Below are positions 36,484-57,518 of a stretch of DNA of 64,000 bases, piece by piece (position 1 is the stretch's first letter; each line of letters starts with the position of its first letter). The position numbers and the translations under genes were made by a program. A model generated the notes under the pieces. That model worked only from the letters and a program-made list of their open reading frames with translations. It searched no databases and was not told the DNA's origin. The stretch covers positions 37,545 to 101,544 of the IMG/VR virus record IMGVR_UViG_3300026097_000015. One strand, written 5' to 3'. This stretch comes from a virus.

Positions 36484-36744
36484 TATATATAGTATATTAA
36501 TATATAAGATATATATAAGTATATTCAATAAACTCTATAAGAGTTAATATGAATAATATATATAATAATCAATCAACCCTTTTATATAGTACAGCATTTC
36601 TTGGTCTTGTCAAGTACTTTTTTGATAACGTTTTTATAACTTTAATATATATAAGTATTTTTTCTTGGTTAATAAAACTTGTTAATATAACATCAATTTA
36701 TCGTAAAGTCAATATTCGTTACAATTCTGTGATAAAATTGTATA

Positions 36745-36808
36745 CAGGCTGGTGTCTAGTCCGTCTCTCATACCCACCGCAGCTAGGCATCAGCCCCTTT
36801 TTTATTTT
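36745..36808 (+). ncRNA. Candidate short RNA with promoter and terminator
   Basis: TG-A-TAAAAT at 36730-36738. The transcript would start near 36745 with GGCTGGTG (36747-36754), close with CATCAGCC (36788-36795), then CCTTTTTTATTTTT. About 62 nt; no start codon with SD inside. Same architecture as 9160-9250. The gap 36484-36744 otherwise holds only A+T-rich TATATA runs. Confidence 0.45.
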
Positions 36809-36812
36809 TCAA

Positions 36813-36821
36813 TGGTATAAT
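36813..36821 (+). promoter_or_regulatory. Extended -10 promoter, leaderless layout
   Basis: TG-G-TATAAT with exactly 6 nt to ATG 36828. First promoter of the tail-fibre region. Confidence 0.65.
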
Positions 36822-36827
36822 TTTTAC

Positions 36828-37211
36828 ATGAATCTATGCGGTCCCGAATCCTTTGGTGCTGACCCTGTTAACGTACAATGGCAGGTTGTCAGAGGTGATA
36901 CAGCTACCATGCGTGTTGAGTTTTTAGACGATGACGGAGAGACAGCTTTTGATGTTTCTAACTGGACATTCTCTGCAAGCAGCTATGACCCAAGAAGCGA
37001 TGTAATTGATGAGCTACAGGTTATTGCGGGAAACGGCTATGTAGACATTACAGCACCCACAGAAATTACATCCTTGTGGGGTGGGGGATACCGCTCAGTG
37101 AGTGCAGAACTTACTTTTGACGTGCAGGCAGTTATTGACTCCAGCACTACATGGACACCAGTTATTGGAACTATTAAAGTATTATCAGACGTTAGTGGGA
37201 GTACGCTTTAA
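36828..37211 (+). CDS. BppU-N-like tail protein A
   Basis: 127 residues from ATG 36828; the long upstream in-frame extension spans the terminator and is rejected. VNVQWQVVRGDTATMRVEFLDDDG...FDVSNWTFSA is an N-terminal baseplate/BppU-like beta-sandwich pattern shared with 38068 and 41263. Predicted small baseplate or fibre-attachment protein. Stop overlaps the next ATG. Confidence 0.65.
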   Translation: MNLCGPESFGADPVNVQWQVVRGDTATMRVEFLDDDGETAFDVSNWTFSASSYDPRSDVIDELQVIAGNGYVDITAPTEITSLWGGGYRSVSAELTFDVQAVIDSSTTWTPVIGTIKVLSDVSGSTL

Positions 37212-38067: not shown

Positions 38068-38430
38068 ATGAGCTTCCCAGCTACTTATAACTTTTCATAC
38101 TACAAGGGAGATACCTATAGCTTTTTGATCTATCCCAAAGATGCTAGTGGTGCGGCGTTTATTCTTTCGGGATATACCGCTGAATTTACGATTGCAGAAT
38201 CAAGGGGTAGTGACGGCGTTTCTTCCCAAATAGAAGCTTATTCAAACATTCCTACTGGAGAAAATTACATTGAATGCGTGATTAGGCCAACTGATGGTGC
38301 CCAGCTAGACCCTGACAAAGATTACGTATATGACGTAGAGATATTAAAAACTGGAGACAGCTTTAATTCTGTTTATACAGTGTTAACAGGAAATATCTCA
38401 ATTACCGATCAGGTGACAGGAGCCACATAA
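38068..38430 (+). CDS. BppU-N-like tail protein B
   Basis: 120 residues. FSYYKGDTYSFLIYPKDASGAAFILSGYTAEFTI is the same kind of GDT-x-x-F-x-V...D...L-x-G-x-T sandwich pattern as in baseplate upper proteins. One-domain protein. Stop overlaps next ATG. Confidence 0.65.
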   Translation: MSFPATYNFSYYKGDTYSFLIYPKDASGAAFILSGYTAEFTIAESRGSDGVSSQIEAYSNIPTGENYIECVIRPTDGAQLDPDKDYVYDVEILKTGDSFNSVYTVLTGNISITDQVTGAT

Positions 38431-39035
38431 TGGCTGATGTTCTTTTATCTACCGATGAAGTAACAGTTCTTGGCTCCCCCGCCTCACGAGATGTTGTTGA
38501 TAATAATGGGGTAATCCAAAATGCAGCAGAGCTAACCGTCGGTCCCCCAGGAAATAGGGGAAGTCGTATATTTGTTGGAGAAGGAAATCCAAACTTAGTA
38601 GATGTTGGTCAGGAGATTCTTCCATTTGATTTATACATTAATCTGCTTGCATCTGATTTAGAATACCTATACTTATATCAGTATTTTAATAGTGACGGTC
38701 AGCTTCAATGGAATAGAATTCTAAGACTAATCCCAAACACTTTTTTAACAACTCAGACCAAAGAATTTACTAACGGTCAGACTGTATTTTTTGTTCCTGT
38801 CGTAAATGTTGTACCGCTTTCAGAAATCGGCAATATCACAGAACAAAACTTTAATATTCAGCATACGGTTTTAAATGACAAACCAGTTGCATCTTCTATC
38901 ACAGCAGGAACACTTATAGTCCAAGAGGATCAGCTTGTATTGCCAATAACAATTAATGCTGCAGAGTTTGACGGCACTAGTTGGGCCTATTTATCATCTT
39001 TTAAAGCTGTTCAGCTATTCGTTACGATTGCATAG
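38430..39035 (+). CDS. Tail-fibre associated protein, paralogue pair member 1
   Basis: 201 residues, same length as its neighbour at 39043. Shared block GPPGNRGSRIFVGEGNPN then LDLYINL-type segment, a repeated RLIPNTF and a C-terminal F.AVQLFVTI. Beta-rich, likely fibre or collar part. Starts where the previous stop ends. Confidence 0.6.
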   Translation: MADVLLSTDEVTVLGSPASRDVVDNNGVIQNAAELTVGPPGNRGSRIFVGEGNPNLVDVGQEILPFDLYINLLASDLEYLYLYQYFNSDGQLQWNRILRLIPNTFLTTQTKEFTNGQTVFFVPVVNVVPLSEIGNITEQNFNIQHTVLNDKPVASSITAGTLIVQEDQLVLPITINAAEFDGTSWAYLSSFKAVQLFVTIA

Positions 39036-39042
39036 GTAAAAC

Positions 39043-39648
39043 ATGACTACTCCAGAATTTTATGGACCCAGCTCCACCTCTGTGGTGGTGGATAAGGGAA
39101 TAAGCGGAGTAAGAGGGAATAACGTTTTTGTCTCCCAGGGAGAACCAAACTCAAACCTATCAGGAGATTTTGTAGAAGGCGACTTGGCAATTGATATCTC
39201 CACTTCTAGTCCAACGTATCTGTTTGTATATAGATATGAAACTAGAATTGTAAATGAAAATGCCCTAACGGCATGGTACCTAAATTTGATAGATGATTCT
39301 GCCCAATCTATTGTAAGATTGATTCCTAATTCTGCAAGTCGCAATGCCAACACAACTTTCGTACAGGGACAGGCGTCGGTAACCGTGCAGATTGCTATAC
39401 CAGCAGCTTTTAGCAACGGTGGAAGTTTGACTGAAAGTTTAGATATTCAATACAGCATTGTAAATAATACAACTCAGTCTACAGATATTCAAAATCCTAT
39501 ATCTTCATTCTTTGCAGTTACAAACTCTACTATCGTAAATAACGTAGCAACTCTTGAGCTAGCCTTTTCTGCGGTAGAGCTAGATAGCGGACTTTGGATA
39601 CCATTGCAGGGACAAAAAACTATCCATTTAGTAATTACTGTGGTATAA
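39043..39648 (+). CDS. Tail-fibre associated protein, paralogue pair member 2
   Basis: 201 residues. GISGVRGNNVFVSQGEPNSN, IVRLIPNSASRN and the terminal KTIHLVITVV align with member 1. Tandem duplication. No catalytic motif. Confidence 0.6.
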   Translation: MTTPEFYGPSSTSVVVDKGISGVRGNNVFVSQGEPNSNLSGDFVEGDLAIDISTSSPTYLFVYRYETRIVNENALTAWYLNLIDDSAQSIVRLIPNSASRNANTTFVQGQASVTVQIAIPAAFSNGGSLTESLDIQYSIVNNTTQSTDIQNPISSFFAVTNSTIVNNVATLELAFSAVELDSGLWIPLQGQKTIHLVITVV

Positions 39649-40312: not shown

Positions 40313-40615
40313 TTGGCTACTCAACAAAAGGTTTTATTTAGAGGAAATGTTCCACAAACTAACACCTCCGTATACTCTGTACCATCTTCAACTTCTGCAG
40401 TCGTAACACAAATAGTTATTTCCAATGGTACATCTGCAAGTGTTGCAGCTACCGTAAAATTAGGTGGATTTTCAGTTATTGATGGAACAGATTTAACATC
40501 AAACGATGCCTTTATATTAAATTTAAAACAGGTCATGAACGAGTTTGATGCAATTGAAATATCCGCAGCTCAAGCAGGACTTGAAATACACATAAGCGGT
40601 GTGGAGATTTCTTAA
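40313..40615 (+). CDS. Small beta-sandwich tail protein
   Basis: 100 residues from a TTG. SVYSVPSSTSAVVTQIVISNGTSASVAATVKL is closely like the C-terminal domains of the propeller proteins at 46074 and 47309 (YTVPSS...I-x-I-x-NN-T-S). It could be a stand-alone version of their C-terminal module. Stop overlaps next ATG. Confidence 0.65.
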   Translation: MATQQKVLFRGNVPQTNTSVYSVPSSTSAVVTQIVISNGTSASVAATVKLGGFSVIDGTDLTSNDAFILNLKQVMNEFDAIEISAAQAGLEIHISGVEIS

Positions 40616-41262: not shown

Positions 41263-41673
41263 ATGGCAACCCTAAGAGGAAATTCTAGTTCTTATGATAT
41301 AGGAAATAATCCACCAGAGGTAAGATGGACCTTTGTTCGTGGAGATACCGCTGCATTCAGGGTATATGTGACAGACGACGAGCGTCAACCACTTACAATT
41401 TCTGATTGGAATATCCAGATGAAAATTAAACGTCCAATTATTGCTCAGGAAGACTTTACAATTACAGATGCTGCAACAACAATTTTAACTCTTAATCCAG
41501 AAGCAGATGAAAATGACGAAGCTGGAGAGTTTACGGTAAAAATTTCAGCAACTCAGTCAAAAATATTAGAAACTGGGGATATTTTTGATATTGAGCTGTC
41601 TTTGCCACAAGATCAGATTGTTTGGACAGTTGCCCAGGGTAGGGTGAGCGTTCTTGAGGACGTAACTGACTAA
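41263..41673 (+). CDS. BppU-N-like tail protein C
   Basis: 136 residues. VRWTFVRGDTAAFRVYVTDDERQPLTISDWNIQMKI is nearly the same signature as protein A (VQWQVVRGDTATMRV). Third of three paralogues. Stop overlaps next ATG. Leaderless by position. Confidence 0.65.
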   Translation: MATLRGNSSSYDIGNNPPEVRWTFVRGDTAAFRVYVTDDERQPLTISDWNIQMKIKRPIIAQEDFTITDAATTILTLNPEADENDEAGEFTVKISATQSKILETGDIFDIELSLPQDQIVWTVAQGRVSVLEDVTD

Positions 41674-42398: not shown

Positions 42399-44054
42399 AT
42401 GGCAACAGTCAATAAAGACTTTAAGGTCAAGAATGGTCTAGTCGTTGAGGGTGCAAACGCATCTGTTAACGGATTTGACATTCTAACCAAAGCCACAGAT
42501 GACCAGAACTACATCATTGGATTGATTGGTGGTTCTGCTACATCTGCAAACACAGCTGACTCAGTTGTGCTTCGTGATGCAAATGGAGACTTTGCTGGTG
42601 GGACCATTACCGCAGAAACAGGCTTCACAGGAGACCTGACAGGAAACGTAACTGGTAACGTAACAGGAAACGTAACAGGCGACTTGACAGGTGATGTTAC
42701 AGGCAATGTAACAGGTAACCTAACAGGCAATGTAACTGGAAATGTGACTGGAGATGTTACAGGTGACGTAACAGGTAATCTAACTGGAAATCTTACAGGT
42801 GATGTTACAGGAGATGTAACTGGAACAGTTTCAGACATTTCTAATCACGACACAGGTGACCTGGCAGAAGGCACTAACCTTTACTTTACAGATCAAAGGG
42901 CTCTAGACGCTACTAACGCCGCTTATGACGCAGCTGGTTCAGCATCTACCGCAGAATCAAACGCTAACACCTACACCGATAACCTAATTGGTGACGGTAC
43001 AGTAGATGGAACAGCTGGAAACACTGTTAAGGATCGTATTGACACAGCAGTAGCTAATCTGGTTGACACAGCACCAACTGCTCTTGATACCCTTAACGAA
43101 TTAGCCGCAGCTCTAGGCGATGACGCAGACTTTGCCACTACCGTGTCTAACAACATTGGAACTAAGGTAAGTAAGGATGGCGATACCATGACTGGTTTGT
43201 TGACCCTGTCAGGTGCTCCATCAGATGATCTACACGCTGCAACTAAAAAGTATGTAGATGATGCAGTTTCGGGAGGAGTTGGAAGCATTGATTCAGATGA
43301 TGTGCCAGAAGGTACCAATAATCTTTACTTCACTGACGAGCGTGCACAGGATGCTCTAGCAGCCGCCATTGCAGCAGGTACACACGAGAACATCGTAATT
43401 ACCTATGATGACAATGCAAACTCAATTAGCTTTGTTGCTGAAAACGGTGTAGACGACTCAACCACTACAGATCTTGCTGAAGGAACAAACTTGTACTTCA
43501 CAGACGAAAGAGCACAGGATGCTATTGCAGCTGCTATTTCAGCGGGTACACAGACAAACATTGTAATTACATACAATGACGCAACCAACTCATTTGACTT
43601 TGTTGCTGAAAATGGTGTAGATGATTCAGACACTGACGATCTAACCGAAGGTAGCTCAAACCTATACTTCACAGACGCTCGTGCAGTATCTGCTCTTGAG
43701 GCTGTAGTTCCTAACTTTACCGAGGTAGACATCAATTCAGTTGCAACTCAGGTTGCTGCTACAGTTAACGTACCTACCGCTGGTATTGCAAACGCACACC
43801 AATTCACTCGTGCAGACTACGATTCAGCAGAGTACATCGTAAAGGTTGATGATGGAACACACACAGAGGTTTCGAAGATTCTTTTGACTCTTGACTCTTC
43901 AGACAACATCTCAATCACAGAGTACGGTATCGTAGGAACCAACGGTACATTAGGTACAGTTTCAGCTACTACAGATGGAACTAATGTAACTCTACAGGTA
44001 ACAACTGCAAACAATAACTCAGATGTTACTGTTGCAGGAACACTAATTAAATAA
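42399..44054 (+). CDS. Long tail fibre with GNVTG repeats
   Basis: 551 residues. NKDFKVKNGLVVEGANASVNG starts a fibre-attachment motif (also at 44083). From about 72-145 the chain is built from tandem 4-residue G-[ND]-[VL]-T steps, predicted to form a triple-stranded beta rod. Then come NLYFTD-x-RA-DAL-type repeats (four), a chaperone-like APSDDLHAATKKYVDDA motif and a C-terminal domain shared with 41929. Such architecture is that of elongated trimeric fibres. SD AAGGAG. Confidence 0.85.
   Translation: MATVNKDFKVKNGLVVEGANASVNGFDILTKATDDQNYIIGLIGGSATSANTADSVVLRDANGDFAGGTITAETGFTGDLTGNVTGNVTGNVTGDLTGDVTGNVTGNLTGNVTGNVTGDVTGDVTGNLTGNLTGDVTGDVTGTVSDISNHDTGDLAEGTNLYFTDQRALDATNAAYDAAGSASTAESNANTYTDNLIGDGTVDGTAGNTVKDRIDTAVANLVDTAPTALDTLNELAAALGDDADFATTVSNNIGTKVSKDGDTMTGLLTLSGAPSDDLHAATKKYVDDAVSGGVGSIDSDDVPEGTNNLYFTDERAQDALAAAIAAGTHENIVITYDDNANSISFVAENGVDDSTTTDLAEGTNLYFTDERAQDAIAAAISAGTQTNIVITYNDATNSFDFVAENGVDDSDTDDLTEGSSNLYFTDARAVSALEAVVPNFTEVDINSVATQVAATVNVPTAGIANAHQFTRADYDSAEYIVKVDDGTHTEVSKILLTLDSSDNISITEYGIVGTNGTLGTVSATTDGTNVTLQVTTANNNSDVTVAGTLIK
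42630..42832 (+). repeat. GNVTG coding tandem repeat
   Basis: About 17 copies of a 12-nt unit (GGNNANGTNACN) encoding G-[ND]-[VL]-T. Prone to slippage and in-frame length change. Confidence 0.85.
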
Positions 44055-45637: not shown

Positions 45638-46072
45638 ATGGCAACCAGAATGCAACAAAGAAGGGGCACAGCCTCTCAATGGAATAACGCAGACCCAGTA
45701 TTAGCGGCTGGCGAAATTGGATTTGAAATTGATACCGTCAAATTTAAGATTGGTGACGGAATCAATGAGTGGTCATTGCTTGACTACTTCTCAGCTACCC
45801 CAGATTTGACAGGGTATGCTACCGAAACATACGTAGACAACGCTATAAATGGAGTGCTAGACAGTGCACCCGCCGCTCTTGATACCCTCAATGAGCTCGC
45901 TGCAGCACTGGGGGATGATGCAGATTTTAGCACTACTATTACTAATAGTATTGCAGCAAAAGCACCTCTAGATTCCCCCTCATTTACTGGAACAGTAAAT
46001 TTCTCAAATTCAACGGTACAGGGTATTGAAATCCCACAACCAATTCACCCATTCGTAATGTTAGGAGCATAA
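45638..46072 (+). CDS. Fibre protein with Mtd-N-like domain
   Basis: 144 residues. MQQRRGTASQWNNADPVLAAGEIGFEIDTVKFKIGDG is the N-terminal major-tropism-determinant-like module common in phage fibres. Then LDTLNELAAALGDDADF repeats a motif of 42399. The stop is 1 nt before the next start (GTG). Probably the adaptor that carries the propeller proteins. Confidence 0.8.
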   Translation: MATRMQQRRGTASQWNNADPVLAAGEIGFEIDTVKFKIGDGINEWSLLDYFSATPDLTGYATETYVDNAINGVLDSAPAALDTLNELAAALGDDADFSTTITNSIAAKAPLDSPSFTGTVNFSNSTVQGIEIPQPIHPFVMLGA

Positions 46073-46073
46073 G

Positions 46074-47309
46074 GTGGCAGATAGTTATAAAATTTTAGCA
46101 CAAGATGTTGCATTGGGTTCAGCAGCTCAAAATAGATACCTCGCATTTGTGGATCAGAGCTCTTTCCCAGTCGTTGCGTACTCAACAAATTTGATTGAAT
46201 GGTCTATTTCATCTCTACCAGTATCCGCACACTGGGACAATACACTTTTTGTAGAAGGAAATTTTTACGCAATAGGAATTCAGGGTAGTGGTCAAGGGCC
46301 TGCCTCAATATATTCAACAGACGGAGTCAATTGGACACAGGGCAATATACCTTCTTCATCAATAGGGCAAGGTCTTGCGTATGGAAGCGGAAAGTTTGTC
46401 ACAACAGGTTATTACAATACTAACTTTGCATACTCTACAGATTTTATTACTTGGACTACAGGCACCATGCCATCGGTCACAGGCTCCCCAAACTGGCCAA
46501 CGATAATCTATGGTGAGGATAAGTTTGTTGCTATAAAAGAAAGTCAGACTACCTATTCCACGGATGGAATAAGCTGGAGCTCTAATGCAAGCTTGCCAGC
46601 CAGCATGCTTGACGTTGTGTATGGAGCAAATAATTTTGTTGCAGTGGGATCCACAAATGCAGCTTATTCTACTGACGGAATAAGCTGGTCTAACTCAACA
46701 ATTCCCGTAAGTGTAAGTTCCGTTACTTATGGTAATGAAAGGTTTGTTGCGATTGGTTCGGGCACCCTAGCCGCCTACTCCACAGACGGAGCAACCTGGG
46801 TCTCATCCTCTATACCAAATCAATCATGGGAAGACATTTCTTTTGGAGATGGCAAGTTTTTTGCAGTTTCTGAGCCCAATTTTAATTTAGAATACGCTGT
46901 TATTGCCTACTCAACTGACGGAATTACATGGACAGAGCAAGCCTTGCCAGCAGAAGAAAGCTTCTTTTCCAATTACTATTATCGAAATGTGGCTTATGGA
47001 AATCCAGTACTGCCTACTGCACAAACACAATATACAGTTCCATCATCAAATCAAGCCGCAATTTCTGCAATCTCTGTTATTAATAATGATACTACTTCCC
47101 ACACTTATTCTGTAGGGATTGTAAAGGCGTCAGATACTGGAACGCTTGGCATCTCAAATACTCAAACAATTATCCCAACTAAAACAATAGCTGCTGGAGA
47201 AATTGATGAAATTGTCGGGGGTATTACATTATCAGCAGGAGATCAAATTAGAACAAATTCTGATTCTACTGACTTAACAGTACACATTTACGGAACGGAG
47301 ATATCATAA
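46074..47309 (+). CDS. Propeller adhesin 1 (7 repeats + C-terminal sandwich)
   Basis: 411 residues from GTG. Seven copies of a 40-44-residue unit centred on [AF]YSTDG-I-[ST]-W and V-x-YG-x-x-x-F-V-A fill residues 20-310, as expected for a seven-bladed beta-propeller (BNR/Ycf48-type). The last 90 residues (YTVPSSNQAAISAISV...YGTEIS) form a sandwich like 40313. This is the most diverged of four tandem paralogues. Predicted receptor-binding protein. Confidence 0.75.
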   Translation: MADSYKILAQDVALGSAAQNRYLAFVDQSSFPVVAYSTNLIEWSISSLPVSAHWDNTLFVEGNFYAIGIQGSGQGPASIYSTDGVNWTQGNIPSSSIGQGLAYGSGKFVTTGYYNTNFAYSTDFITWTTGTMPSVTGSPNWPTIIYGEDKFVAIKESQTTYSTDGISWSSNASLPASMLDVVYGANNFVAVGSTNAAYSTDGISWSNSTIPVSVSSVTYGNERFVAIGSGTLAAYSTDGATWVSSSIPNQSWEDISFGDGKFFAVSEPNFNLEYAVIAYSTDGITWTEQALPAEESFFSNYYYRNVAYGNPVLPTAQTQYTVPSSNQAAISAISVINNDTTSHTYSVGIVKASDTGTLGISNTQTIIPTKTIAAGEIDEIVGGITLSAGDQIRTNSDSTDLTVHIYGTEIS

Positions 47310-48559
47310 TGAGTTTAGATTATAAGAATTTGGGGCAAAGTGGTGTTGCTGGTGAAGGATTAGAGAATTATTATGTATCAGTAGCTGGAGGCCCTGGAGG
47401 CAACTCTACTACTACCGCCGCCTACTCCACAGACGGAATCACCTGGGCAGAGTCAACCATGCCAGTAAGTGCAAGGTGGACATCAGTAACCTATGGAGAA
47501 GGCAAATTTATAGCAGCACCCTACTACTCCGATAACGCATTTTACTCTACCGATGGCATAACCTGGACACAAGCTACTATAGGGTTAAACTTTTACCTGT
47601 CAGCTGTAGGCTATGGAGACGGCAAGTTTGTAGCCCTAAGCCCAGCAGCCTCAACCAACGCCGCCTACTCCACCGATGGCATCACTTGGATAGCCACCAC
47701 TAAGCCAGTCTCGTACTCTAATGAGTGGTACTCTATAACATATGGAAACGGAAAGTTTTTGTCAGTAAATCAGTCGAATATTAATGGGCAGCAGCTGGGT
47801 TTCACCCTTATTTCTACAGACGGAATAACATGGACAGAATCTTCAACTAATCTACCATCAGATTTTGTATGGATAGGCGAAGCAGCTTATGGAGATGGTA
47901 AGTTCGTAACAGTAGCTACCTTTTCCTCCACTGCCGCCTACTCCACAGACGGAATTACCTGGACACAGTCCACCATGCCTACAGGTTCAGGATGGTCCTC
48001 AGTAACCTACGGAGATGGAAAATTTGTAGCAGTGGCAGGCTCCTACACCACTGCCGCCTACTCAACCGACGGTATTACATGGACACAGTCCACCCTCCCA
48101 GCAAGCGACCCATGGAAATCAGTAACCTATGGAGGCGATAAATTTGTAACAGTAGCTGGAGGAAGCGGCACCTCCACCGCCGCCGCTTACTCAACCGACG
48201 GTATTACATGGACACAGTCCACCCTCCCAGCAACTGAAAATTGGTTTTCAGTAATCCACGGAGAAAACCTTTTTAAATTATCCGAAAACAATCAATACAC
48301 AGTACCATCTACAAAAGAAGCTATCATTTCATCTATTTACATAGCAAATAATGAAACAACTTCTCAGACCTATTCTGTGGCGGTAGTTCCAAATGGTGAA
48401 ACACTATCAAACATTCACTACATTAGAAAAGATATTTCAATTGATGGAAATGACTTCCATACTATTGGTACTAAGATTACCCTTGCAGAAGGGGATCAGA
48501 TAATTACCGAGGGTACATCACTAAATGTATCTGTCAACATCTTTGGATTGGAGAAATAG
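47309..48559 (+). CDS. Propeller adhesin 2 (7 repeats + C-terminal sandwich)
   Basis: 416 residues, start overlapping the preceding stop. Seven YSTDGITW units, many near-identical at the DNA level (TCCACCCTCCCAGCAA and similar). C-terminal YTVPSTKEAIISSIYIAN...NIFGLEK sandwich as in adhesin 1. Stop overlaps the next GTG. Confidence 0.75.
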   Translation: MSLDYKNLGQSGVAGEGLENYYVSVAGGPGGNSTTTAAYSTDGITWAESTMPVSARWTSVTYGEGKFIAAPYYSDNAFYSTDGITWTQATIGLNFYLSAVGYGDGKFVALSPAASTNAAYSTDGITWIATTKPVSYSNEWYSITYGNGKFLSVNQSNINGQQLGFTLISTDGITWTESSTNLPSDFVWIGEAAYGDGKFVTVATFSSTAAYSTDGITWTQSTMPTGSGWSSVTYGDGKFVAVAGSYTTAAYSTDGITWTQSTLPASDPWKSVTYGGDKFVTVAGGSGTSTAAAYSTDGITWTQSTLPATENWFSVIHGENLFKLSENNQYTVPSTKEAIISSIYIANNETTSQTYSVAVVPNGETLSNIHYIRKDISIDGNDFHTIGTKITLAEGDQIITEGTSLNVSVNIFGLEK

Positions 48560-49545
48560 TGGGTTTCAAAACTTATAAGAACGGTGAAGAGGTAGGTATT
48601 TTTGATACCGCTGATATTTCCAATGTAAGTGTAGATGACTTAGAGGTTAGGGATGTTGTTAGTAATATTTTTGTTGCAGTAGCTAATGCCTCCACCGACG
48701 CCGCTTACTCCACCGACGGAATCACCTGGACAGCCATCACCATGCCAACATCTCCAGATTGGTCCTCAGTAACCTATGGAAATGGAAAGTTTGTAGCAGT
48801 ATCTACTAACGATTTTGACATCGCCGCTTACTCCACCGACGGAATCACCTGGACACAGACCACTATGCCTACAAGCAACAACTGGCAATCAGTGACCTAC
48901 GGAGATGGAAAGTTTGTGGCAGTAGTCAACTCTTACCCTTCCTCCACCGCCGCTTACTCCACCGACGGAATTACCTGGGCACAAGCTACTTTGCCAACAA
49001 GCAATGGCTGGTACTCAGTAACCTATGGAGATGGCAAGTTTGTAGCAATAGCCACCTACGGCACCGCCGCCGCCTACTCAACCGATGGCATTACCTGGAC
49101 ACAGTCTACCCTCCCAGCAAATGGATTCTGGTATTCAGTAACCCACGGAGACAATAAGTTTGTAGCAGTAGCCGAAGGCACCGCCGCTTACTCCACAGAC
49201 GGAATAACTTGGACGGGGACTACAACTACAGCAGGGGTCTGGGATTCGATAACTCACGGAAATGATAGATTTTTAGCAGTTGGGTACAACTCTTCTGCCG
49301 CATCATACTCTGATGACGGCATTACTTGGACTCAGGCAACATTGCCAGCCTCTAGAACATGGCGAGTAACCTTTGGTAATGGAAGGTATATAGCAGTTTC
49401 AGACTCTTTTTCCAGCTCCACCACCGCAGCCTACTCCACAGACGGCATTACCTGGACACAGTCCACCTTGCCATCAGGTGCAAATTGGACATCAGTAACC
49501 CACGGAGCACCATTATTAACTAAATCAATCAGAAATCTGTTTTAA
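48559..49545 (+). CDS. Propeller adhesin 3 (7 repeats, short tail)
   Basis: 328 residues from GTG. The N-terminal GFKTYKNGEEVGIFDTADIS adaptor is shared with adhesin 4. Seven YSTDGITW/YSDDGITW units follow; the C-terminus is LLTKSIRNLF instead of a sandwich. Unit 6 has YSDDG. Confidence 0.75.
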   Translation: MGFKTYKNGEEVGIFDTADISNVSVDDLEVRDVVSNIFVAVANASTDAAYSTDGITWTAITMPTSPDWSSVTYGNGKFVAVSTNDFDIAAYSTDGITWTQTTMPTSNNWQSVTYGDGKFVAVVNSYPSSTAAYSTDGITWAQATLPTSNGWYSVTYGDGKFVAIATYGTAAAYSTDGITWTQSTLPANGFWYSVTHGDNKFVAVAEGTAAYSTDGITWTGTTTTAGVWDSITHGNDRFLAVGYNSSAASYSDDGITWTQATLPASRTWRVTFGNGRYIAVSDSFSSSTTAAYSTDGITWTQSTLPSGANWTSVTHGAPLLTKSIRNLF

Positions 49546-49556
49546 CTGGGGGAATA

Positions 49557-50564
49557 TTGGTATTTAGAACTTATAAAAACGGAACAAGGCTAGCAAACTT
49601 TGATTCTTTAGAAATTGAAGATAAGCTAAGCTTAGATGATTTGCAGGTTAATGATGTTGCTACTGATATTTTTGTTGCAGTAGCCGATGCCTCTTCCACC
49701 GCCGCCTACTCCACAGATGGTATCACCTGGACACAGTCCACCCTGCCAGCAAGTACTGCCTGGAACTCAGTAACTTATGGCGACGGAAAATTTGTAGCAG
49801 TAGCGGGAGACAACTATTCCTCCGACACAGCAGCCTACTCAACCGACGCCATAACCTGGACACAGTCCACCCTCCCAGCAAGCGATAGCTTGTTCAGACT
49901 AACTTATGGAGACGGTAAATTTGTAGCAATAGCTAATGCCTCCACCGACGCCGCCTACTCCACAGACGGCATTACCTGGACACAGTCTACTCTCCCAAAT
50001 AACGGGATCTGGCATTCAGTAACTTATGGCGACGGAAAATTTGTAGCAGTAGCTGATTATCCCGCCATTGCAGCCTACTCAACAGACGGAATCACCTGGA
50101 CACAGTCCACCTTGCCAAGTTTTGGTTTTACAGCAGTAACTTATGGAGACGGTAAATTTGCAGCATTGACTACTTTTGGTTCTACCAACACCGCAGCCTA
50201 CTCCACCGACGGTATTACTTGGACACAAACTACTCTGGCAGGGGAGGTGTGGGCTTCAGTAACCTATGGAGACGGTAAGTTTGTAGCAGTATCGGGATTA
50301 AGTAGCACCTCGTCCACCGCCGCCTACTCCACAGATGGTATCACCTGGACACAAACCACTCTACCAGCAAGTGAGAGCTGGTACTCAGTAATCTATGGAA
50401 CCGACAGGTTTGTAGCAGTAGCCAGTAACGCACTTTACGCCAACGCCGCCTACTCTACCGATGGCATCACTTGGACACAGTCTACTTCGACCCCAAGTGC
50501 TGCCTGGCGATCAGTAACTTACGGGTCATCACTATTCACTAAATCAATCAGAGAACTATTCTAA
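49557..50564 (+). CDS. Propeller adhesin 4 (7 repeats, short tail)
   Basis: 335 residues from TTG. FRTYKNGTRLANFDSLEIED adaptor, seven units (unit 2 reads YSTDAITW), and SLFTKSIRELF tail. Closest partner is adhesin 3, so 3 and 4 are a recent duplication. Units are about 125 bp apart in DNA. Confidence 0.75.
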   Translation: MVFRTYKNGTRLANFDSLEIEDKLSLDDLQVNDVATDIFVAVADASSTAAYSTDGITWTQSTLPASTAWNSVTYGDGKFVAVAGDNYSSDTAAYSTDAITWTQSTLPASDSLFRLTYGDGKFVAIANASTDAAYSTDGITWTQSTLPNNGIWHSVTYGDGKFVAVADYPAIAAYSTDGITWTQSTLPSFGFTAVTYGDGKFAALTTFGSTNTAAYSTDGITWTQTTLAGEVWASVTYGDGKFVAVSGLSSTSSTAAYSTDGITWTQTTLPASESWYSVIYGTDRFVAVASNALYANAAYSTDGITWTQSTSTPSAAWRSVTYGSSLFTKSIRELF

Positions 50565-50593: not shown

Positions 50594-50920
50594 ATGTATA
50601 CATACACAGTAAATGATGCAAATACAGTAGAAGTATTTGCTGAAGGTCAGGAAGCACCAATGCTTCGTCAGCCACACTATCCAAACCAGGACGCTTTTGA
50701 CACAAAGGCAGAAGCAGAAGAATGGGCACAGCTATTCATTGCATCAATGGAAGATGAAGCTGCACCATATGCCCCAATTGGCAAGGGTATTGCTGGTGAG
50801 CCAAAGCCAACTAAAGAAGATATGCTTGCAAGGCTAAAAGAGCAAGCAGAGCAGTACGGAGATGACGTACCAGCTCGTCTATCAGAAAGAATTGCTGAAC
50901 TAGAAGCAGAGCTTTCTTAA
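50594..50920 (+). CDS. Hypothetical acidic protein, end of the fibre region
   Basis: 108 residues. MYTYTVNDANTVEVFAEGQ and a later EDMLARLKEQAEQYGDDVP then coiled coil. Small acidic proteins at the end of fibre arrays are sometimes chaperones for fibre folding; that role is speculative. Followed by a strong terminator. Confidence 0.6.
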   Translation: MYTYTVNDANTVEVFAEGQEAPMLRQPHYPNQDAFDTKAEAEEWAQLFIASMEDEAAPYAPIGKGIAGEPKPTKEDMLARLKEQAEQYGDDVPARLSERIAELEAELS

Positions 50921-50938: not shown

Positions 50939-50966
50939 CGGAGTCACTAGACAGTGACTCCGTTTT
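50939..50966 (+). terminator. Rho-independent terminator
   Basis: CGGAGTCACT-AGAC-AGTGACTCCG followed by TTTT. Perfect 10-bp stem. Separates the fibre array from the sulfation cassette. Confidence 0.93.
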
Positions 50967-50967
50967 C

Positions 50968-50976
50968 TGTTATAAT
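50968..50976 (+). promoter_or_regulatory. Extended -10 promoter of the sulfation cassette
   Basis: TG-T-TATAAT immediately after the terminator; ATG 50999 follows 22 nt later. Confidence 0.65.
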
Positions 50977-50998
50977 AAATGTAAAAGATTGGCAGGGT

Positions 50999-51658
50999 AT
51001 GGAACATTACGATGTATTAATAGCTACCCCTGGGCACAGCCTAGAGGCACAGTATGTACAAAGTTTATTAGAAACAACAGCAGAATTAAATAATCAAGGT
51101 ATATCTTATAAATGGCTAAACGCCTATTCTTCTCTAGTTCATAATGCAAGAGAAATGACAGCTACTGGCGGTATTGATAGAAATCTTAATCCCCTAGATG
51201 CAGGACCCCTAGGAGATAAAGTAACATACAATAAAATATTTTGGATTGATTCAGATATTTCCTGGACCCCAGAAGATTTTATAAAGCTGTATGAATCAGA
51301 ATATGATGTCGTAACAGGTGCATACCTTTTGGCTGATGGAACTACTACATCAGTTCATGAATGGGGTGTTGTTGGCGGTATGCCAAAAGAAAGAATCATG
51401 TCCTTAGAAGAGCCTCTTAAAATTCAAAGTATGGGATTTGGATTTGCCGCCATAAAAGCAGGGGTATTTGAAAAGCTAGAAAGACCATGGTTTGGTCACT
51501 ATACACAACAAATACAATTGCCAAATGGCAAAATTATGGACACATATCTAGGAGAAGACATCTCTTGGTGTGTCAATGCATATAAAGCGGGTATTGAAAT
51601 TTATCTAGACCCAACAGTATTAGTAGGACATATGAAGAAGGTAAAAATCGAATGGTAG
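50999..51658 (+). CDS. GT-A-fold glycosyltransferase-like protein
   Basis: 219 residues from ATG 50999. The GTG at 50954 lies inside the terminator and is rejected. YDVLIATPGHSLEAQYVQSL, the D-x-D of IFWIDSDISWTPEDF and LGEDISWCVNAYKAG fit a GT-A fold glycosyltransferase. It is the first gene of a four-gene cluster with sulfotransferase and APS kinase and so may build the acceptor glycan. Overlaps the next gene by 7 nt. Confidence 0.75.
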   Translation: MEHYDVLIATPGHSLEAQYVQSLLETTAELNNQGISYKWLNAYSSLVHNAREMTATGGIDRNLNPLDAGPLGDKVTYNKIFWIDSDISWTPEDFIKLYESEYDVVTGAYLLADGTTTSVHEWGVVGGMPKERIMSLEEPLKIQSMGFGFAAIKAGVFEKLERPWFGHYTQQIQLPNGKIMDTYLGEDISWCVNAYKAGIEIYLDPTVLVGHMKKVKIEW

Positions 51659-52473
51659 ACAAAAAATATTATTTTATGGGAGGATTGCCAAGATCTGGTA
51701 GCACTCTTTTGGCATCAATCTTAAATCAAAATCCAGATATTTATGTATCTGCTCAATCACCTCTGCCCAATATGTTGGGGGCAGCGTATAATCAATATCA
51801 AAGTAAAGAAAATCTAGACTCAAGTAGATTTGATGATATCTATAATGTAGTAGATAACGTTATACCGCTTTTCTATGAGAAGCACCCAGAGAAATACATT
51901 ATTGACAAAAACTTTTCTTGGCTAGAGCCACACCCATATGTAATTCTAGAGAATCATCTTAAAAATGATATTCGTGTTATCTGTCCAGTTCGTAATGTGA
52001 TGGATATTCTAGCTTCTTGGAATAGGCTTTGTGAGGCAGACCCAAATAATGAATATGACAAAATTATCATAAAGGGAGATAAGAGTAAAAGAGCAATTGC
52101 TGATAAAAGGGCAGACTTTTTTATGAATATGAATAATGAAGAAATGACGGGTATTCTAAACGGCATTGAAAATCTTAAAAGAATTCTATACCCACAATTT
52201 AAAGACAACATCATGCTTGTAGATTATGATGACTTAATGTCAGACACCCCAGGTACAATCAAAAAGGTATACGACTTTTTAGGCATTGAACACTTTGACC
52301 ACACCTTTGAAAACATGAAAACAACTCACGAATATAAAGATATCTGGGGTGTAAAAGGTCACCACGAAATTAAGCCCACTATTCAAAAAGAAGAATATGA
52401 CCTAGAGTCAATCTTCTCTAAGCAAACAATTGAAAAGTATTCAGGTCTAGAATTTTGGAAGGGTATTAAATGA
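51652..52473 (+). CDS. Sulfotransferase (PAPS-dependent)
   Basis: 273 residues. MGGLPRSGSTLLASIL (10-24) is the 5'-phosphosulfate loop. CPVRNVMDILASWNRL carries the 3'-phosphate-binding arginine/serine pair, and VDYDDLMSDTPGTIKKVYDFLG the C-terminal helix of the family. Transfers sulfate from PAPS to a hydroxyl or amine. Stop overlaps the next ATG, so it is coupled to the PAPS-forming enzyme. Confidence 0.9.
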   Translation: MVDKKYYFMGGLPRSGSTLLASILNQNPDIYVSAQSPLPNMLGAAYNQYQSKENLDSSRFDDIYNVVDNVIPLFYEKHPEKYIIDKNFSWLEPHPYVILENHLKNDIRVICPVRNVMDILASWNRLCEADPNNEYDKIIIKGDKSKRAIADKRADFFMNMNNEEMTGILNGIENLKRILYPQFKDNIMLVDYDDLMSDTPGTIKKVYDFLGIEHFDHTFENMKTTHEYKDIWGVKGHHEIKPTIQKEEYDLESIFSKQTIEKYSGLEFWKGIK

Positions 52474-53219
52474 TTATCCAAATCATAGGACTACCAGGTA
52501 CAGGTAAGACTGCCTTAGCAAAAGAGCTATGCAGAAGAACAGATGCTATTCATTTGAATGCAGATGATGTGCGTGCTGATTTAAATAAAGACCTTGGATT
52601 TTCTGTAGAGGACAGGGTAGAGCAGGCTAGAAGAATGGGGGCATTATCTAGACTTCTATCTAATCAAGGGAAGCTTGTGGTTGTAGACTTTGTAAATCCA
52701 ACACAAGAAACCAGGGAAGCCTTTGGTAATGCAGATAGAATTATCTGGGTTAACAGAATTGAAAGCGGTAGGTTTGAAGATACAAACAATCTATGGGAAG
52801 ACCCAAAGCGTCACGACCTTCAAATCTTTGCTGGTTTAACTATTGAAGAAGAAGCAATGGAAGTCTTAAAAGCTTTTAACATTCATGATTGGACTGAGCC
52901 AACTACCTTGCAATTAGGCAGGTATCAGCCATGGCATGAGGGTCATAGTGCACTGTATGATGCAGGACTAGAAAGAACTTCACAGGTTTTAGTAGGTGTA
53001 CGTAATACCGAGGGCACATCAGAAAAGGACCCAATGGGATATTCAGAAGTAGAGTCTTACATTCGTAAAGATAGGCCAAATGCTCTAATTATGAAACTAC
53101 CAAATATCACAAATATTATCTATGGACGTGATGTGGGATATAAGATTGAAAAGGTAGAACTATCTCAAGAACTACAATCTATTTCAGCTACACAAAAGCG
53201 TAAAGAGATGGGTATTTAG
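52470..53219 (+). CDS. APS kinase fused to HxGH nucleotidylyltransferase domain
   Basis: 249 residues. The N-terminal P-loop kinase has GLPGTGKTALAKEL (7-20), LNADDVRADLN and VVDFVNPTQE, as in adenylylsulfate kinases (CysC). The C-terminal 110 residues contain RYQPWHEGHSALYDAG (HEGH at 156-159) and ISATQKRKEM (238-247), which match HxGH/ISxTxxR nucleotidylyltransferases (ATP sulfurylase- or cytidylyltransferase-like). It could make PAPS from ATP and sulfate or APS. Coupled at both ends. Confidence 0.82.
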   Translation: MIIQIIGLPGTGKTALAKELCRRTDAIHLNADDVRADLNKDLGFSVEDRVEQARRMGALSRLLSNQGKLVVVDFVNPTQETREAFGNADRIIWVNRIESGRFEDTNNLWEDPKRHDLQIFAGLTIEEEAMEVLKAFNIHDWTEPTTLQLGRYQPWHEGHSALYDAGLERTSQVLVGVRNTEGTSEKDPMGYSEVESYIRKDRPNALIMKLPNITNIIYGRDVGYKIEKVELSQELQSISATQKRKEMGI

Positions 53220-53861: not shown

Positions 53862-56800
53862 ATGTCTAACCCTTCTAATCTATATGCAGAAAAAGTTTTT
53901 GCTGAACATCCTCTCGCCCTTTGGGCACTAGATGATCAGTCGGATTATATTTCCCTAATTTCTGAAGCCCAAAGAGATTACACAACCTGGTCTATTTCTG
54001 GCGGAACTATCTCCGAAGAAGTGCAGCCAGTCGATGCTCCCTTTACAGATAGTTTTGTGGCAAAGGCGTTGGGAGACGTAGAGCCATCTCCAGGGTATGG
54101 GCAGATAGTCTTAACTAGCCCAAACATAATAAATATTAACGAATTAAACTCAACCTATGAAACATTCTCGATAGGTGCATACTTTTATTCCGATAATGCT
54201 CTAATATCTTCTTTGCAAGTAGGTTATCAATATTATGACCCTGAGCTAGAGCAGTATGTGCTTATAGATGATACTGTGGAAAACAGGGCAGCTGGAATTG
54301 ACCCAACAATGAAGATTTCTAATATTTCTGTTGGAAACGCCTGGGTCTTTATTTCTGAAACGTTTACCGCACCAGTAGAATCTGGAAGCATACAACTTGT
54401 ACTCAAGATAGACTATTTGGGCGGAGCCTCGTCGTCAGAAGAAAATAGGTTCTACATTAACGGTGTCAGCTTTGGGCAATGGTCAGAGGAGTTTTCGGCC
54501 ACATCTTTAGGACAAGAGCCTATAGACTTGCCGTCAGATATTGCATTGCCAGAATCAAAGGTGGTAAAAGCCGATGCGTATGGACTTCAAGAAAATCCAG
54601 GCTACTACTTCGTAAAAGATAATTTCTTTATGGCAAGGAACGCAGGTATACCTCTTGTTTATGGTGCCCCTAGCGTAACAACCATATTTGACAATGACGA
54701 CCTTCCATCACTTATTATACCTGGGCTAGGCATGCTAAACGAGGTGGGTAGATTTAAAGAATACACCCTAGAGATGTGGCTAAGGGTAAACCCAGAAACA
54801 ACAGAGTATAGGCGTATTTTCGGCCCTATCGCATCTGAGGATGGTCTGTATGTAAACGGCCCCTTCTTAACATTAAAAGTGGGGGATAACATCGCATCTC
54901 ATTATGTGGGGGAATGGTTTAGACCAATGCTTTTGCATATTGAAGTAATCCAAGATTCTGTAAGTATGCTCGTAAATGGAGAGCAGGTATTTTCTACAGA
55001 AATTGATACAGCAAGTCTTGACTTACCCTCTGAGTTTAACGGCGAAGGCAAGAATCAGGACTGGCTAGGTTTCTACGGACATAGCGACGTATATCCAATA
55101 GACATTGAGTCTATAGCAATCTACCCATATCAAGTGCCCTCTATACTAGCAAAGAGAAGATGGGTGTTTGGACAAGGTGTAGAATTCCCAGAAAACATCA
55201 ACTCTTCTTATAGTGGAACATCTGTTTTGATAGACTATCCATTTGCTAATTATGCAAACAACTACAACTATCCAGATCTGGGTAGATGGGAACAGGGCGT
55301 GGTAGAAAACTTAGATACAGATGGCGATAGACTATCATCTCCAGAATATGATTTACCAGAAATTGTTTTTGACAATAAGATATCAGAAGAATGGTTTTCT
55401 GATATTGAAGCAGTTCAAGATGAAAATGATGCCTTCATAACATTATTTCCAAATAATGGCTGGGACAATACAAACGGATACCTATTTCTTAATAATTTTA
55501 ACTTTTTGCTTAATGGAACTAGAGCATTTTACTCTACTTTTAAAGAAGAAAGTGTTGCTGAATGGGAAAGTCAAAATCCAGAATCAGGAGAATATCCCTA
55601 TAACCTACAAACATTAATATATATACAGGATAAGCTCACAAATAACTTTTTTGAAACAAGGATAAATATATCCACAAATAGCATTGAGTATTGCATTGGG
55701 TATGATGGAGAGATCGAGGTGATTCATACAACCCCCAGACAAACTGCTGAAGAAGATTTTGTTACAGGTTTAGATGTAAGAAAAGCTTCAGATTTTTTTG
55801 GAGGAAGGCTGGCCGCTCTTTTTGGAAAAGTATCTTCACTTTCTATGTATCTTGGAGGTAGGCCAGATTTTACTCAAACATTTAGAGGTAAGATATATAA
55901 TTTGGGGCTTGCAACTGAGAAAAACATTCAGACAATTCTAAATATTTTTGACGAGTCTGGAATTCCTCTAAACTCCGAAGATGTTTTTGAGCTGTTCCAG
56001 CAACAAGATACTGTTGAGTATGACGGAGGAGATAGCTATTTCGGGAATAACCCTTCATTCTTTGATGTCATTATTGACGGGGGAGACCCACAAACCTTAA
56101 CAGCCTCTACCCCAGTCTCAAAGATCTCAGCTCATCTAGCAAGTTATTTGTTTATGCCAAGATTCCACTTTGGAAAATATAAATTTGATGTCAATATACA
56201 GTCTTCTTGGGAAGATTATGTGCCACTCTCTTATTTTGGGAAGTATGTTGTAGATGAGCAAGGGTTAAGCTATTATGATCTTGACTTTATCCAATTCAAC
56301 GTAGACTATCCATTTTTTGAGATAGTTTCTGGAGACAATTATGATACTTCTAATAATAATGTGCGAACATATATCTCTTTTCAATACCTTGCAAATGGAG
56401 CGAATGCAACTCTAGGTAGCCTTAAAAATTTTTATGGTGCCCCTGAAAGCGGAATTATACAGCCAGGACCAGATTGGATGAACGCCAGATACGAGGTTGT
56501 TGACGGAACAGTTCTATACCTTCCCAAGGGCGTATCCTTTGATGATCTAGCACTTGTAGTTTACTTAGAAATGGGTGTAGAGGGTGCGTCTAACACGCCA
56601 ATATCAATTAGATCATTAAAACTTAGCTCTCAGTCTCTAAGCACATCTTCTCCAACACCAATAGGAAGCAGGTTCGGAGTTCCCATCTACCCCTTTAAAA
56701 AATCGGGAGTATACTTTAATTACAAGTCTCAAAACCCATACGCTATTTATAAAGATAGCACTCCATACTTGTATTTAACTCGGAATAGTGGAATTCAGGT

Positions 56801-57518
56801 CAAGGGTGATTTTGATGAAAATATTAGTCGTGGATTATCAATTCCAGTAAATCAGGGTCTTTCTGGAGATTATAGGGTGATTGCTGCACAAATGTCTATG
56901 AGATATGATAAGGATCAGTTTCCATCAGAAAAAACCGAATTATTTGAAATACAAAGTAATAACCAGTATATTAAATTTTATATTGAGCCAGTTGGGTCAA
57001 GCAGAAAAAGAGCAAAAATAATTGCCTTTAATGCAACTACAAACTCTCTAGAAAGAGGAATATCCTTTTACTGGAACGGAAAACTTGTTCGTAATCCAGT
57101 ATTAACCGCAAAGGAGTGGGGAATGCTAGGTATAGGATTTGCTAAAACTCTTAACTTTGATAATTTTGCAGGAGCAATTAGACTAACTGGGCCAGTAGTG
57201 TTTAATAATATATCTCACTACCAATCAACAAATTTGCAAGAAGTTCAAAATATTGCCACTAGATCATGGCTAAGAGTAAAATATCTAGGAGTTTCAGAAT
57301 TAGACTGGGGATTCTGGGAATCAGCTTATACATGGGAGGATGTCTTAGTCGTTGCATCTACGAGCTACTATGGCGTAGATCCTGGAGATATTTATGAAAC
57401 ATATACAGGCACAAACAAGTTTATAATTGATGATTCTAGAAAATTTAGACTAAGCGAGTACGAATATACATATAGAAACGACATTGTTGTACAGAGCCGT
57501 ACCATAACACCAGTTTGA
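53862..57518 (+). CDS. Large LamG-containing virion protein
   Basis: 1218 residues. No signal peptide. Contains jelly-roll/LamG segments, e.g. LEMWLRVNPETTEYRRIFGP and LHIEVIQDSVSMLVNGEQVFS (about 300-400), and further beta-rich blocks to the end (RSWLRVKYLGVSELDWGFW near 1130). Size, beta content and neighbours point to a minor tail or baseplate protein. The C-terminal 80 residues repeat-free. Preceded by -10 TAAAAT and SD GGAGA. Confidence 0.75.
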   Translation: MSNPSNLYAEKVFAEHPLALWALDDQSDYISLISEAQRDYTTWSISGGTISEEVQPVDAPFTDSFVAKALGDVEPSPGYGQIVLTSPNIININELNSTYETFSIGAYFYSDNALISSLQVGYQYYDPELEQYVLIDDTVENRAAGIDPTMKISNISVGNAWVFISETFTAPVESGSIQLVLKIDYLGGASSSEENRFYINGVSFGQWSEEFSATSLGQEPIDLPSDIALPESKVVKADAYGLQENPGYYFVKDNFFMARNAGIPLVYGAPSVTTIFDNDDLPSLIIPGLGMLNEVGRFKEYTLEMWLRVNPETTEYRRIFGPIASEDGLYVNGPFLTLKVGDNIASHYVGEWFRPMLLHIEVIQDSVSMLVNGEQVFSTEIDTASLDLPSEFNGEGKNQDWLGFYGHSDVYPIDIESIAIYPYQVPSILAKRRWVFGQGVEFPENINSSYSGTSVLIDYPFANYANNYNYPDLGRWEQGVVENLDTDGDRLSSPEYDLPEIVFDNKISEEWFSDIEAVQDENDAFITLFPNNGWDNTNGYLFLNNFNFLLNGTRAFYSTFKEESVAEWESQNPESGEYPYNLQTLIYIQDKLTNNFFETRINISTNSIEYCIGYDGEIEVIHTTPRQTAEEDFVTGLDVRKASDFFGGRLAALFGKVSSLSMYLGGRPDFTQTFRGKIYNLGLATEKNIQTILNIFDESGIPLNSEDVFELFQQQDTVEYDGGDSYFGNNPSFFDVIIDGGDPQTLTASTPVSKISAHLASYLFMPRFHFGKYKFDVNIQSSWEDYVPLSYFGKYVVDEQGLSYYDLDFIQFNVDYPFFEIVSGDNYDTSNNNVRTYISFQYLANGANATLGSLKNFYGAPESGIIQPGPDWMNARYEVVDGTVLYLPKGVSFDDLALVVYLEMGVEGASNTPISIRSLKLSSQSLSTSSPTPIGSRFGVPIYPFKKSGVYFNYKSQNPYAIYKDSTPYLYLTRNSGIQVKGDFDENISRGLSIPVNQGLSGDYRVIAAQMSMRYDKDQFPSEKTELFEIQSNNQYIKFYIEPVGSSRKRAKIIAFNATTNSLERGISFYWNGKLVRNPVLTAKEWGMLGIGFAKTLNFDNFAGAIRLTGPVVFNNISHYQSTNLQEVQNIATRSWLRVKYLGVSELDWGFWESAYTWEDVLVVASTSYYGVDPGDIYETYTGTNKFIIDDSRKFRLSEYEYTYRNDIVVQSRTITPV

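What the first reader, a model, noticed from the sequence alone, without database searches (positions are those of the whole stretch)
46074..50564. Four tandem adhesin genes each with exactly seven propeller repeats
Seen: 46074, 47309, 48559 and 49557 each carry seven [AF]YST(D/N)-x-I-x-W units of about 42 residues. Two share a C-terminal sandwich, also found alone at 40313. The other two share an N-terminal TYKNG adaptor and a KSIR-x-LF tail. Known: seven-unit BNR/Ycf48-like repeats form seven-bladed propellers. Inference: duplicated receptor-binding or displayed adhesins with interchangeable caps. Near-identical DNA blocks allow recombination to swap blades.
Basis: partly seen in the sequence, partly recalled or inferred. 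Interest (0 to 1): 0.78.

Follow-up and report, generated by a model that had tools for sequence, protein, structure and literature searches.

The report
Phage seven-bladed propeller adhesin gene cluster
Four neighbouring genes of an uncultured phage each encode a wheel of exactly seven near-identical blades, probably a host-surface-binding head with one variable face; relatives keep the number seven while exchanging blades and plugging the wheel into different loops of the same anchor domain.

Summary
Genes at 46074, 47309, 48559 and 49557 each carry exactly seven YSTDGITW-type units. AlphaFold2 of gene 2 gives 28 ring strands (7 x 4), and its best fold match is seven-bladed. The repeat unit is split between the ends of the domain, as a closed ring requires. 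Of 33 complete genes at the same locus in related phages, 23 have seven units; 12, 13 and 14 look like double rings. Another family cuts the ring at a different loop and also adds up to seven. (1) The 'C-terminal sandwich' is one domain interrupted by the ring: relatives carry its halves before and after (spliced E down to 1e-30), and window genes 1 and 2 probably use another loop. (2) Blades have no positional ancestry across phages, and close relatives show blade-by-blade mosaics at synonymous sites, so blade exchange is real, though shared DNA blocks here are only 24-46 bp. Variability sits in two loop sets of one face. Best reading: virion adhesins; binding and virion location untested. 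New variant of a known kind.

The parts
46074..47309 (+). gene 1 (411 aa): sandwich strand 1 (SYKILAQ) - seven-blade ring - rest of sandwich
   Evidence: ring about 46131-47003, sandwich C part about 47004-47306; strand-1 assignment moderate (p about 0.01)
47309..48559 (+). gene 2 (416 aa): same architecture; structure predicted here
   Evidence: AlphaFold2 pLDDT 87.5, pTM 0.77; Foldseek best match seven-bladed 7bid, TMt 0.75; ring about 47366-48265, sandwich C part about 48284-48556
48559..49545 (+). gene 3 (328 aa): TYKNG adaptor - seven-blade ring - KSIRNLF tail
   Evidence: ring about 48664-49512
49557..50564 (+). gene 4 (335 aa): TYKNG adaptor - seven-blade ring - KSIRELF tail
   Evidence: ring about 49665-50531
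40313..40615 (+). stand-alone sandwich domain without a ring (100 aa, phrog_1276-like)
   Evidence: about 42% identical to a tail-operon protein of Arquatrovirinae Streptomyces phages
45638..46072 (+). Mtd_N adaptor protein (144 aa) directly upstream; marks the left edge of the slot in several relatives
   Evidence: Pfam PF18454 E 5e-13; phage tail PHROGs; conserved order
50594..50920 (+). small protein (108 aa) that follows the ring genes in most relatives
   Evidence: conserved order; only a weak PHROG match
50954..51658 (+). phrog_1574 / glycosyltransferase-like gene, right edge of the slot

Best explanation
The four genes encode virion host-surface-binding proteins (adhesins). The head of each is a closed seven-bladed beta-propeller built from a 37-48-residue unit with a short Asp-box (S-x-D-x-x-x-W). 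The ring is closed by the two ends of the domain: the N-terminal segment supplies strands 2-4 of one blade and the C-terminal segment its strand 1. In genes 1 and 2 the ring sits inside a loop of a small beta-sandwich that serves as the anchor; in genes 3 and 4 a short TYKNG adaptor takes that role. Loops 2-3 and 4-1, which form one face, are hypervariable and would carry the binding surface. The opposite face holds the conserved turns and Asp-boxes, and the chain enters and leaves there. Ring size stays at seven because closure demands it, while single blades are duplicated and exchanged between rings. Shown here: seven units, predicted fold, split sandwich in relatives, variability in two loops of the unit, blade exchange in relatives. 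Inferred: presence on the virion, ligand binding, and which face points outward.
For: Seven units in all four genes. 23 of 33 complete genes in the same slot of relatives have seven; 12, 13 and 14 look like double rings. AlphaFold2 of gene 2 and of L177:4177-5343, each with 28 propeller strands plus sandwich strands. Foldseek: 7bid (7 blades) TMt 0.75 against Tako8 (8 blades) 0.53-0.57; Vgb lyase (7 blades) 0.70-0.74 against designed or Kelch six-blade proteins 0.58-0.67. Halves of the repeat unit at both ends. A second class closes the ring at the Asp-box loop and also adds up to seven. Split sandwich: stand-alone model positions 1 to about 55 before and about 61-109 after the ring, spliced E 1e-17 to 1e-30 in 13 relatives. 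Entropy peaks only in loops 4-1 and 2-3; in Asp-box propellers loop 2-3 is on the functional top face (PMC2716378). Neighbourhood: Mtd_N adaptor, collagen-like and lectin-like tail genes upstream, portal/protease/capsid downstream. Ring fused to tail-fibre modules in L180 and L019. Same sandwich next to a minor tail protein gene in a Streptomyces phage.
Against: No experiment and no virion proteomics. Coordinates of the models could not be inspected; the top Foldseek hits by E-value for L177 are six-bladed, and seven is favoured by TM-score and strand count. The first-loop nesting in genes 1 and 2 rests on weak statistics (p 0.01 and 0.03) and on a low-confidence strand. The N-terminal half-unit of gene 1 does not score. 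Face assignment relies on general propeller topology. Unit counts depend on a score threshold; distant cellular relatives scored only about five motifs.
Confidence: 0.7

Rival explanations
1. The rings are glycan-processing enzymes (tail depolymerases or glycosidases) of the Asp-box type rather than binders.
For: Most structurally known Asp-box propellers are glycosidases (PMC2716378); tail-associated enzymes are common (general knowledge).
Against: Invariant or nearly invariant columns of the nested family are mostly structural (Trp, Gly, Ser, Thr of the motif and hydrophobic core); the variable-face loops hold no conserved residue of catalytic type. The seven blades are nearly equivalent. 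No glycosidase family hit.
Confidence: 0.1
2. The rings are head or tail decoration proteins that bind environmental glycans or stabilise the particle, and do not choose the host.
For: One relative fusion matches a PHROG labelled head decoration (L019); several different rings in one phage would suit unspecific sticking.
Against: Position next to an Mtd_N tail adaptor and tail-fibre-like genes; fusions in L180 match tail-fibre PHROGs; the sandwich lies in a tail operon in Streptomyces phage Aaronocolus.
Confidence: 0.15
3. Ordinary repeat proteins in which seven is an accident of recent gene duplication from one seven-unit ancestor.
For: The four genes are tandem paralogues; genes 3 and 4 are 63% identical.
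Against: Blades of related phages show no positional ancestry (same index 0.415, different index 0.415), so seven has been kept through blade turnover; a differently cut family reaches seven as well.
Confidence: 0.05

Closest known systems
PhiKZ gp131 C-terminal domain (4GBF, cited in PMC4901313)
   Same: seven-bladed propeller in a phage, at the baseplate periphery, proposed as receptor binding or cell-degrading
   Different: one domain of one protein; no nested sandwich or tandem gene family described there; not compared directly here
Staphylococcus phage phi11 RBP Gp45 (PMC4901313)
   Same: propeller as receptor-binding platform in a phage, ring closed by the N-terminal strand
   Different: five blades, trimeric stem-platform-tower protein
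[quoted passage not shown] PMC2716378)
   Same: motif in the loop between strands 3 and 4; conserved bottom face, variable functional top face
   Different: here the short form occurs in all seven blades; in 2009 the short form was known mainly from five-bladed GH32/GH43 enzymes with one or two copies
YCF48 (2xbg, 5ojr)
   Same: seven-bladed, among the best structural matches of L177:4177-5343 (TMt 0.62-0.64)
   Different: no sequence-family match; photosystem assembly factor
WRAP / recently amplified WD40 propellers (PMC6805158)
   Same: continuing birth of propellers from single blades
   Different: WD40 blades; here turnover goes on within a phage gene family at fixed ring size
DUF6242-named or unnamed propeller proteins of uncultured Caudovirales (BFVD)
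   Same: same fold, up to 39% identity
   Different: unannotated; nesting, alternative ring cuts and blade exchange not found described in the papers searched

Membership tests
Asp-box (BNR) propeller | consensus S-x-D-x-G-x-T-W / Pfam BNR match | tested here: not met
   motif is STDGITW, one residue shorter; no BNR family in Pfam at E up to 1 nor at E up to 0.01 in 14 relatives
s-Asp-box propeller | S/T-x-D/N-x-x-x-W/F/Y, between strands 3 and 4 | tested here: met
   all 28 motifs fit; strand pattern of the model; definition from PMC2716378
Seven-bladed beta-propeller | 28 strands, ring closure, fold match | tested here: met
   prediction, not experiment
EPTP repeat family (PF03736) | curated Pfam score | tested here: inconclusive
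   genes 2, 3 and 4 pass the cut-off (21.1, 32.9 and 30.7 bits against 21), but with no or one stretch significant on its own; gene 1 has no hit
DUF6242 (PF19755) | curated Pfam score | tested here: not met
   19.7-26.3 bits against cut-off 29
phrog_1276 (sandwich) | profile match | tested here: inconclusive
   gene 1 E 1.7e-6 and 40313 E 1.8e-6, covering only about one third of the profile
Diversity-generating retroelement target (Mtd type) | reverse transcriptase nearby | tested here: not met
   no RVT_1 in the 101,544-base record; the record may be incomplete
Phage receptor-binding protein | binds host receptor, present at tail tip | not testable with these tools
   only gene neighbourhood and fusions

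The most novel reading that the evidence does not exclude
A retroelement-free diversity system: phages keep a fixed seven-seat wheel and recombine blades through short conserved core sequences, so that each ring is a new combination of seven variable loop pairs presented on one face, while the same anchor domain accepts the wheel at alternative loops.
Probability: 0.35. Interest if true: 0.78.

Novelty: new variant of a known kind. Interest (0 to 1): 0.55.

Why it matters
Propellers are known as phage receptor binders, but a multigene family with one to five ring genes per phage, fixed ring size, two alternative ring cuts, alternative insertion loops in the same anchor, and mosaic blades would be a natural experiment in combinatorial binding surfaces without a retroelement. 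It would make the question of how phages diversify adhesins by repeat recombination testable in sequence data alone, and gives a functional lead for many unnamed phage proteins with this fold.

Tried and rejected
Pfam, PHROGs and PDB sequence searches for the rings gave no informative family. A diversity-generating retroelement was looked for and not found. Blade-to-blade orthology between genes 3 and 4 and between genes 1 and 2 was tested and is weak (p 0.09 and 0.04), so the genes are not simple copies blade by blade. The strand-1 splice test was not significant for the ring proteins of L040 and, with the richer model, of L186, so only window genes 1 and 2 are claimed for the first-loop class, and with caution. 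An automatic classification of the ring cut by strand scores was too noisy to use as a count. The annotated phage collection gave only five distant ring matches. Literature searches found no description of this nesting or of blade exchange in phages, but the library holds open-licence papers only. A phage tail protein hit for the nested-family profile in the PDB (2l04, E 0.02) was judged too weak. One search was a failed script, repeated; a wrong coordinate, repeated.

Full report
What is there. Four ORFs on the + strand at 46074-47309, 47309-48559, 48559-49545 and 49557-50564 carry exactly seven copies each of a YSTDGITW-type motif at 37-48 residue spacing. The window is the last 64,000 bases of a 101,544-base viral contig. 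Downstream lie a portal, an endonuclease, a head maturation protease and a capsid protein; the protease is about 40% identical to that of Stanwilliamsviridae phages of Streptomyces, with the same portal-protease-capsid order. Upstream lies a run of tail-type genes: collagen-like, phrog_1084 copies, a ConA/laminin-G lectin domain and an Mtd_N adaptor protein.

The repeat is a propeller blade. The unit reads as four strands: (1) SVTYG, (2) KFVAVA, (3) AAYST, (4) GITWTQST. The motif S-T-D-G-I-T-W fits the short Asp-box S-x-D-x-x-x-W and not the full Asp-box S-x-D-x-G-x-T-W (PMC2716378). AlphaFold2 predicts gene 2 with pLDDT 87.5 and pTM 0.77 and a relative, L177:4177-5343, with pLDDT 91.6 and pTM 0.78. 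In both I count 28 strands in the ring (my count from the DSSP output, splitting strands that run together), plus sandwich strands. Foldseek finds propellers: for gene 2 the best match is a seven-bladed designer protein (7bid, TM 0.75 by target length; eight-bladed Tako8 0.53-0.57). For the relative the highest TM scores go to streptogramin/virginiamycin B lyases, which are seven-bladed (0.70-0.74), though six-bladed designs rank first by E-value (0.58-0.67); YCF48 scores 0.62-0.64.

The ring is closed by its ends. In genes 2 to 4 the N-terminal end supplies the second half of the strand 1-2 hairpin (for example NIFVAVA) and the C-terminal end the first half (for example WTSVTHG), so the seventh blade is assembled from both ends. 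Half-unit scores support this for genes 2 to 4, and only at the C-terminal end for gene 1. A second class of relatives has six complete motifs with complete strand 1-2 cores at both ends (33 non-redundant arrays); there the seventh Asp-box hairpin is itself split, for example L029 starts PWTQRTLP and ends AATAP. Both classes add up to seven from different cuts, and both cuts lie in loops of the face that carries the Asp-boxes.

Seven is conserved in relatives. A neighbouring gene (50954, phrog_1574) was used to fetch phages with the same locus. Beside the pair 50594-like/phrog_1574, often with an Mtd_N gene on the other side, these phages carry one to five ring genes. Of 33 complete genes (near-identical contigs counted once), 23 have exactly seven motifs; 12, 13 and 14 occur in proteins of 606-726 residues, as expected of two rings; most of the remaining low counts show gaps of 83-97 residues, that is, an unrecognised motif. 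Over all non-redundant arrays six and seven dominate (48 and 52); of the 21 arrays counted as five, all but one come from distant cellular genomes, where the scoring is less sensitive.

The sandwich is split by the ring. A model of eleven stand-alone sandwiches, including the window's own 40313-40615, has 109 positions. In thirteen relatives the residues before the ring match positions 1 to about 55 and those after it about 61 to 109; joining the two gives E values from 1e-17 to 1e-30. AlphaFold2 places four sandwich strands before and four after the ring in L177. In window genes 1 and 2 the part after the ring matches positions 17-109 and 20-107. The first strand (SYKILAQ, DYKNLGQ) would be contributed by the N-terminus, with p about 0.01 and 0.03 against 1500 unrelated N-termini and a low-confidence strand at residues 6-12 of the gene 2 model. 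So the same anchor accepts a ring in its central loop (well supported) and probably in its first loop (moderately supported). The stand-alone form has relatives of about 42% identity in Arquatrovirinae Streptomyces phages, in the tail operon directly after a minor tail protein gene.

Where it varies. Among 24 blades of the four genes, columns of the motif, the turn and the strand cores are nearly constant, while entropy rises to about 2.5-3.6 bits in two places: the residues around the conserved Trp between strands 4 and 1, and the loop between strands 2 and 3. By propeller topology these loops share one face. In Asp-box propellers that face is the variable, functional one and the opposite face is structural (PMC2716378). 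The chain ends, hence the anchor, leave from the other face. This gives a simple working model: anchored below, binding above. The face assignment is inference.

Blades move. Exact DNA blocks of 24-46 bp are shared within and between the four genes far more than codon choice would give (12 observed, 0.47 expected, 0 of 400 shuffles). In 27 seven-motif genes at this locus, blades of the same gene are most alike (0.479), then blades of other genes of the same phage (0.43-0.44), then of other phages (0.415); for other phages the same position is no more alike than a different position (0.415 and 0.415). Closely related contigs of another phage group show mosaics: L016 against L020 has synonymous divergence 0.66, 0.51, 0.30, 0.22, 0.16, 0.00 along blades 1-6 with flanks at 0.21 and 0.04, and blade 2 of L020 is closest to blade 3 of L014/L008. 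This is exchange without change of ring size. It was seen in relatives, not within the window phage's own population.

Function. No catalytic-type conservation is visible, no glycosidase family matches, and the neighbours and some fusions are of tail type. A host-surface-binding head is the best-supported role; its ligand, its place on the particle and the host are unknown. An actinobacterial host is suggested by the Streptomyces-phage relatives of the head genes and of the sandwich, which is inference only.

Verdict.

Noticed in passing
50954-53219: Directly downstream of the rings: a glycosyltransferase-like gene (phrog_1574), a sulfotransferase (PF00685/PF13469) and a protein with an APS-kinase-like domain plus a weak cytidylyltransferase-like match. 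Together they could make a sulfated glycan; the sulfotransferase and APS-kinase-like genes recur beside this locus in several relatives (L167, L174, L176, L184, L200).
   Followed up: partly
53862-57518: A 1218-residue protein without any Pfam match and only chance-level PHROG matches sits just before the portal region and is conserved in most relatives with the same protease.
   Followed up: partly
42399-44054: Tail-type protein with a 12-base tandem repeat array (42627-42825) and a 168-base tandem repeat (43326-43628); it shares a TAPTALDTLNELAAALGDDADF-like module with the Mtd_N gene at 45638.
   Followed up: no
36549-37211, 38068-38430, 41263-41673: Three copies of the same small family (phrog_1084, unknown function) scattered among the tail-type genes.
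   Followed up: no
L177:6548-6877: A stand-alone sandwich gene lies inside a row of four ring genes, as if one ring had been lost or had not yet been inserted.
   Followed up: partly
L040:6758-9089: Two ring proteins of the other cut class (split Asp-box) also carry the sandwich after the ring, so the anchor is used with both ring cuts.
   Followed up: partly
38430-39035 and 39043-39648: Two adjacent genes of identical length (201 aa) that look like paralogues; no family match for the first.
   Followed up: no
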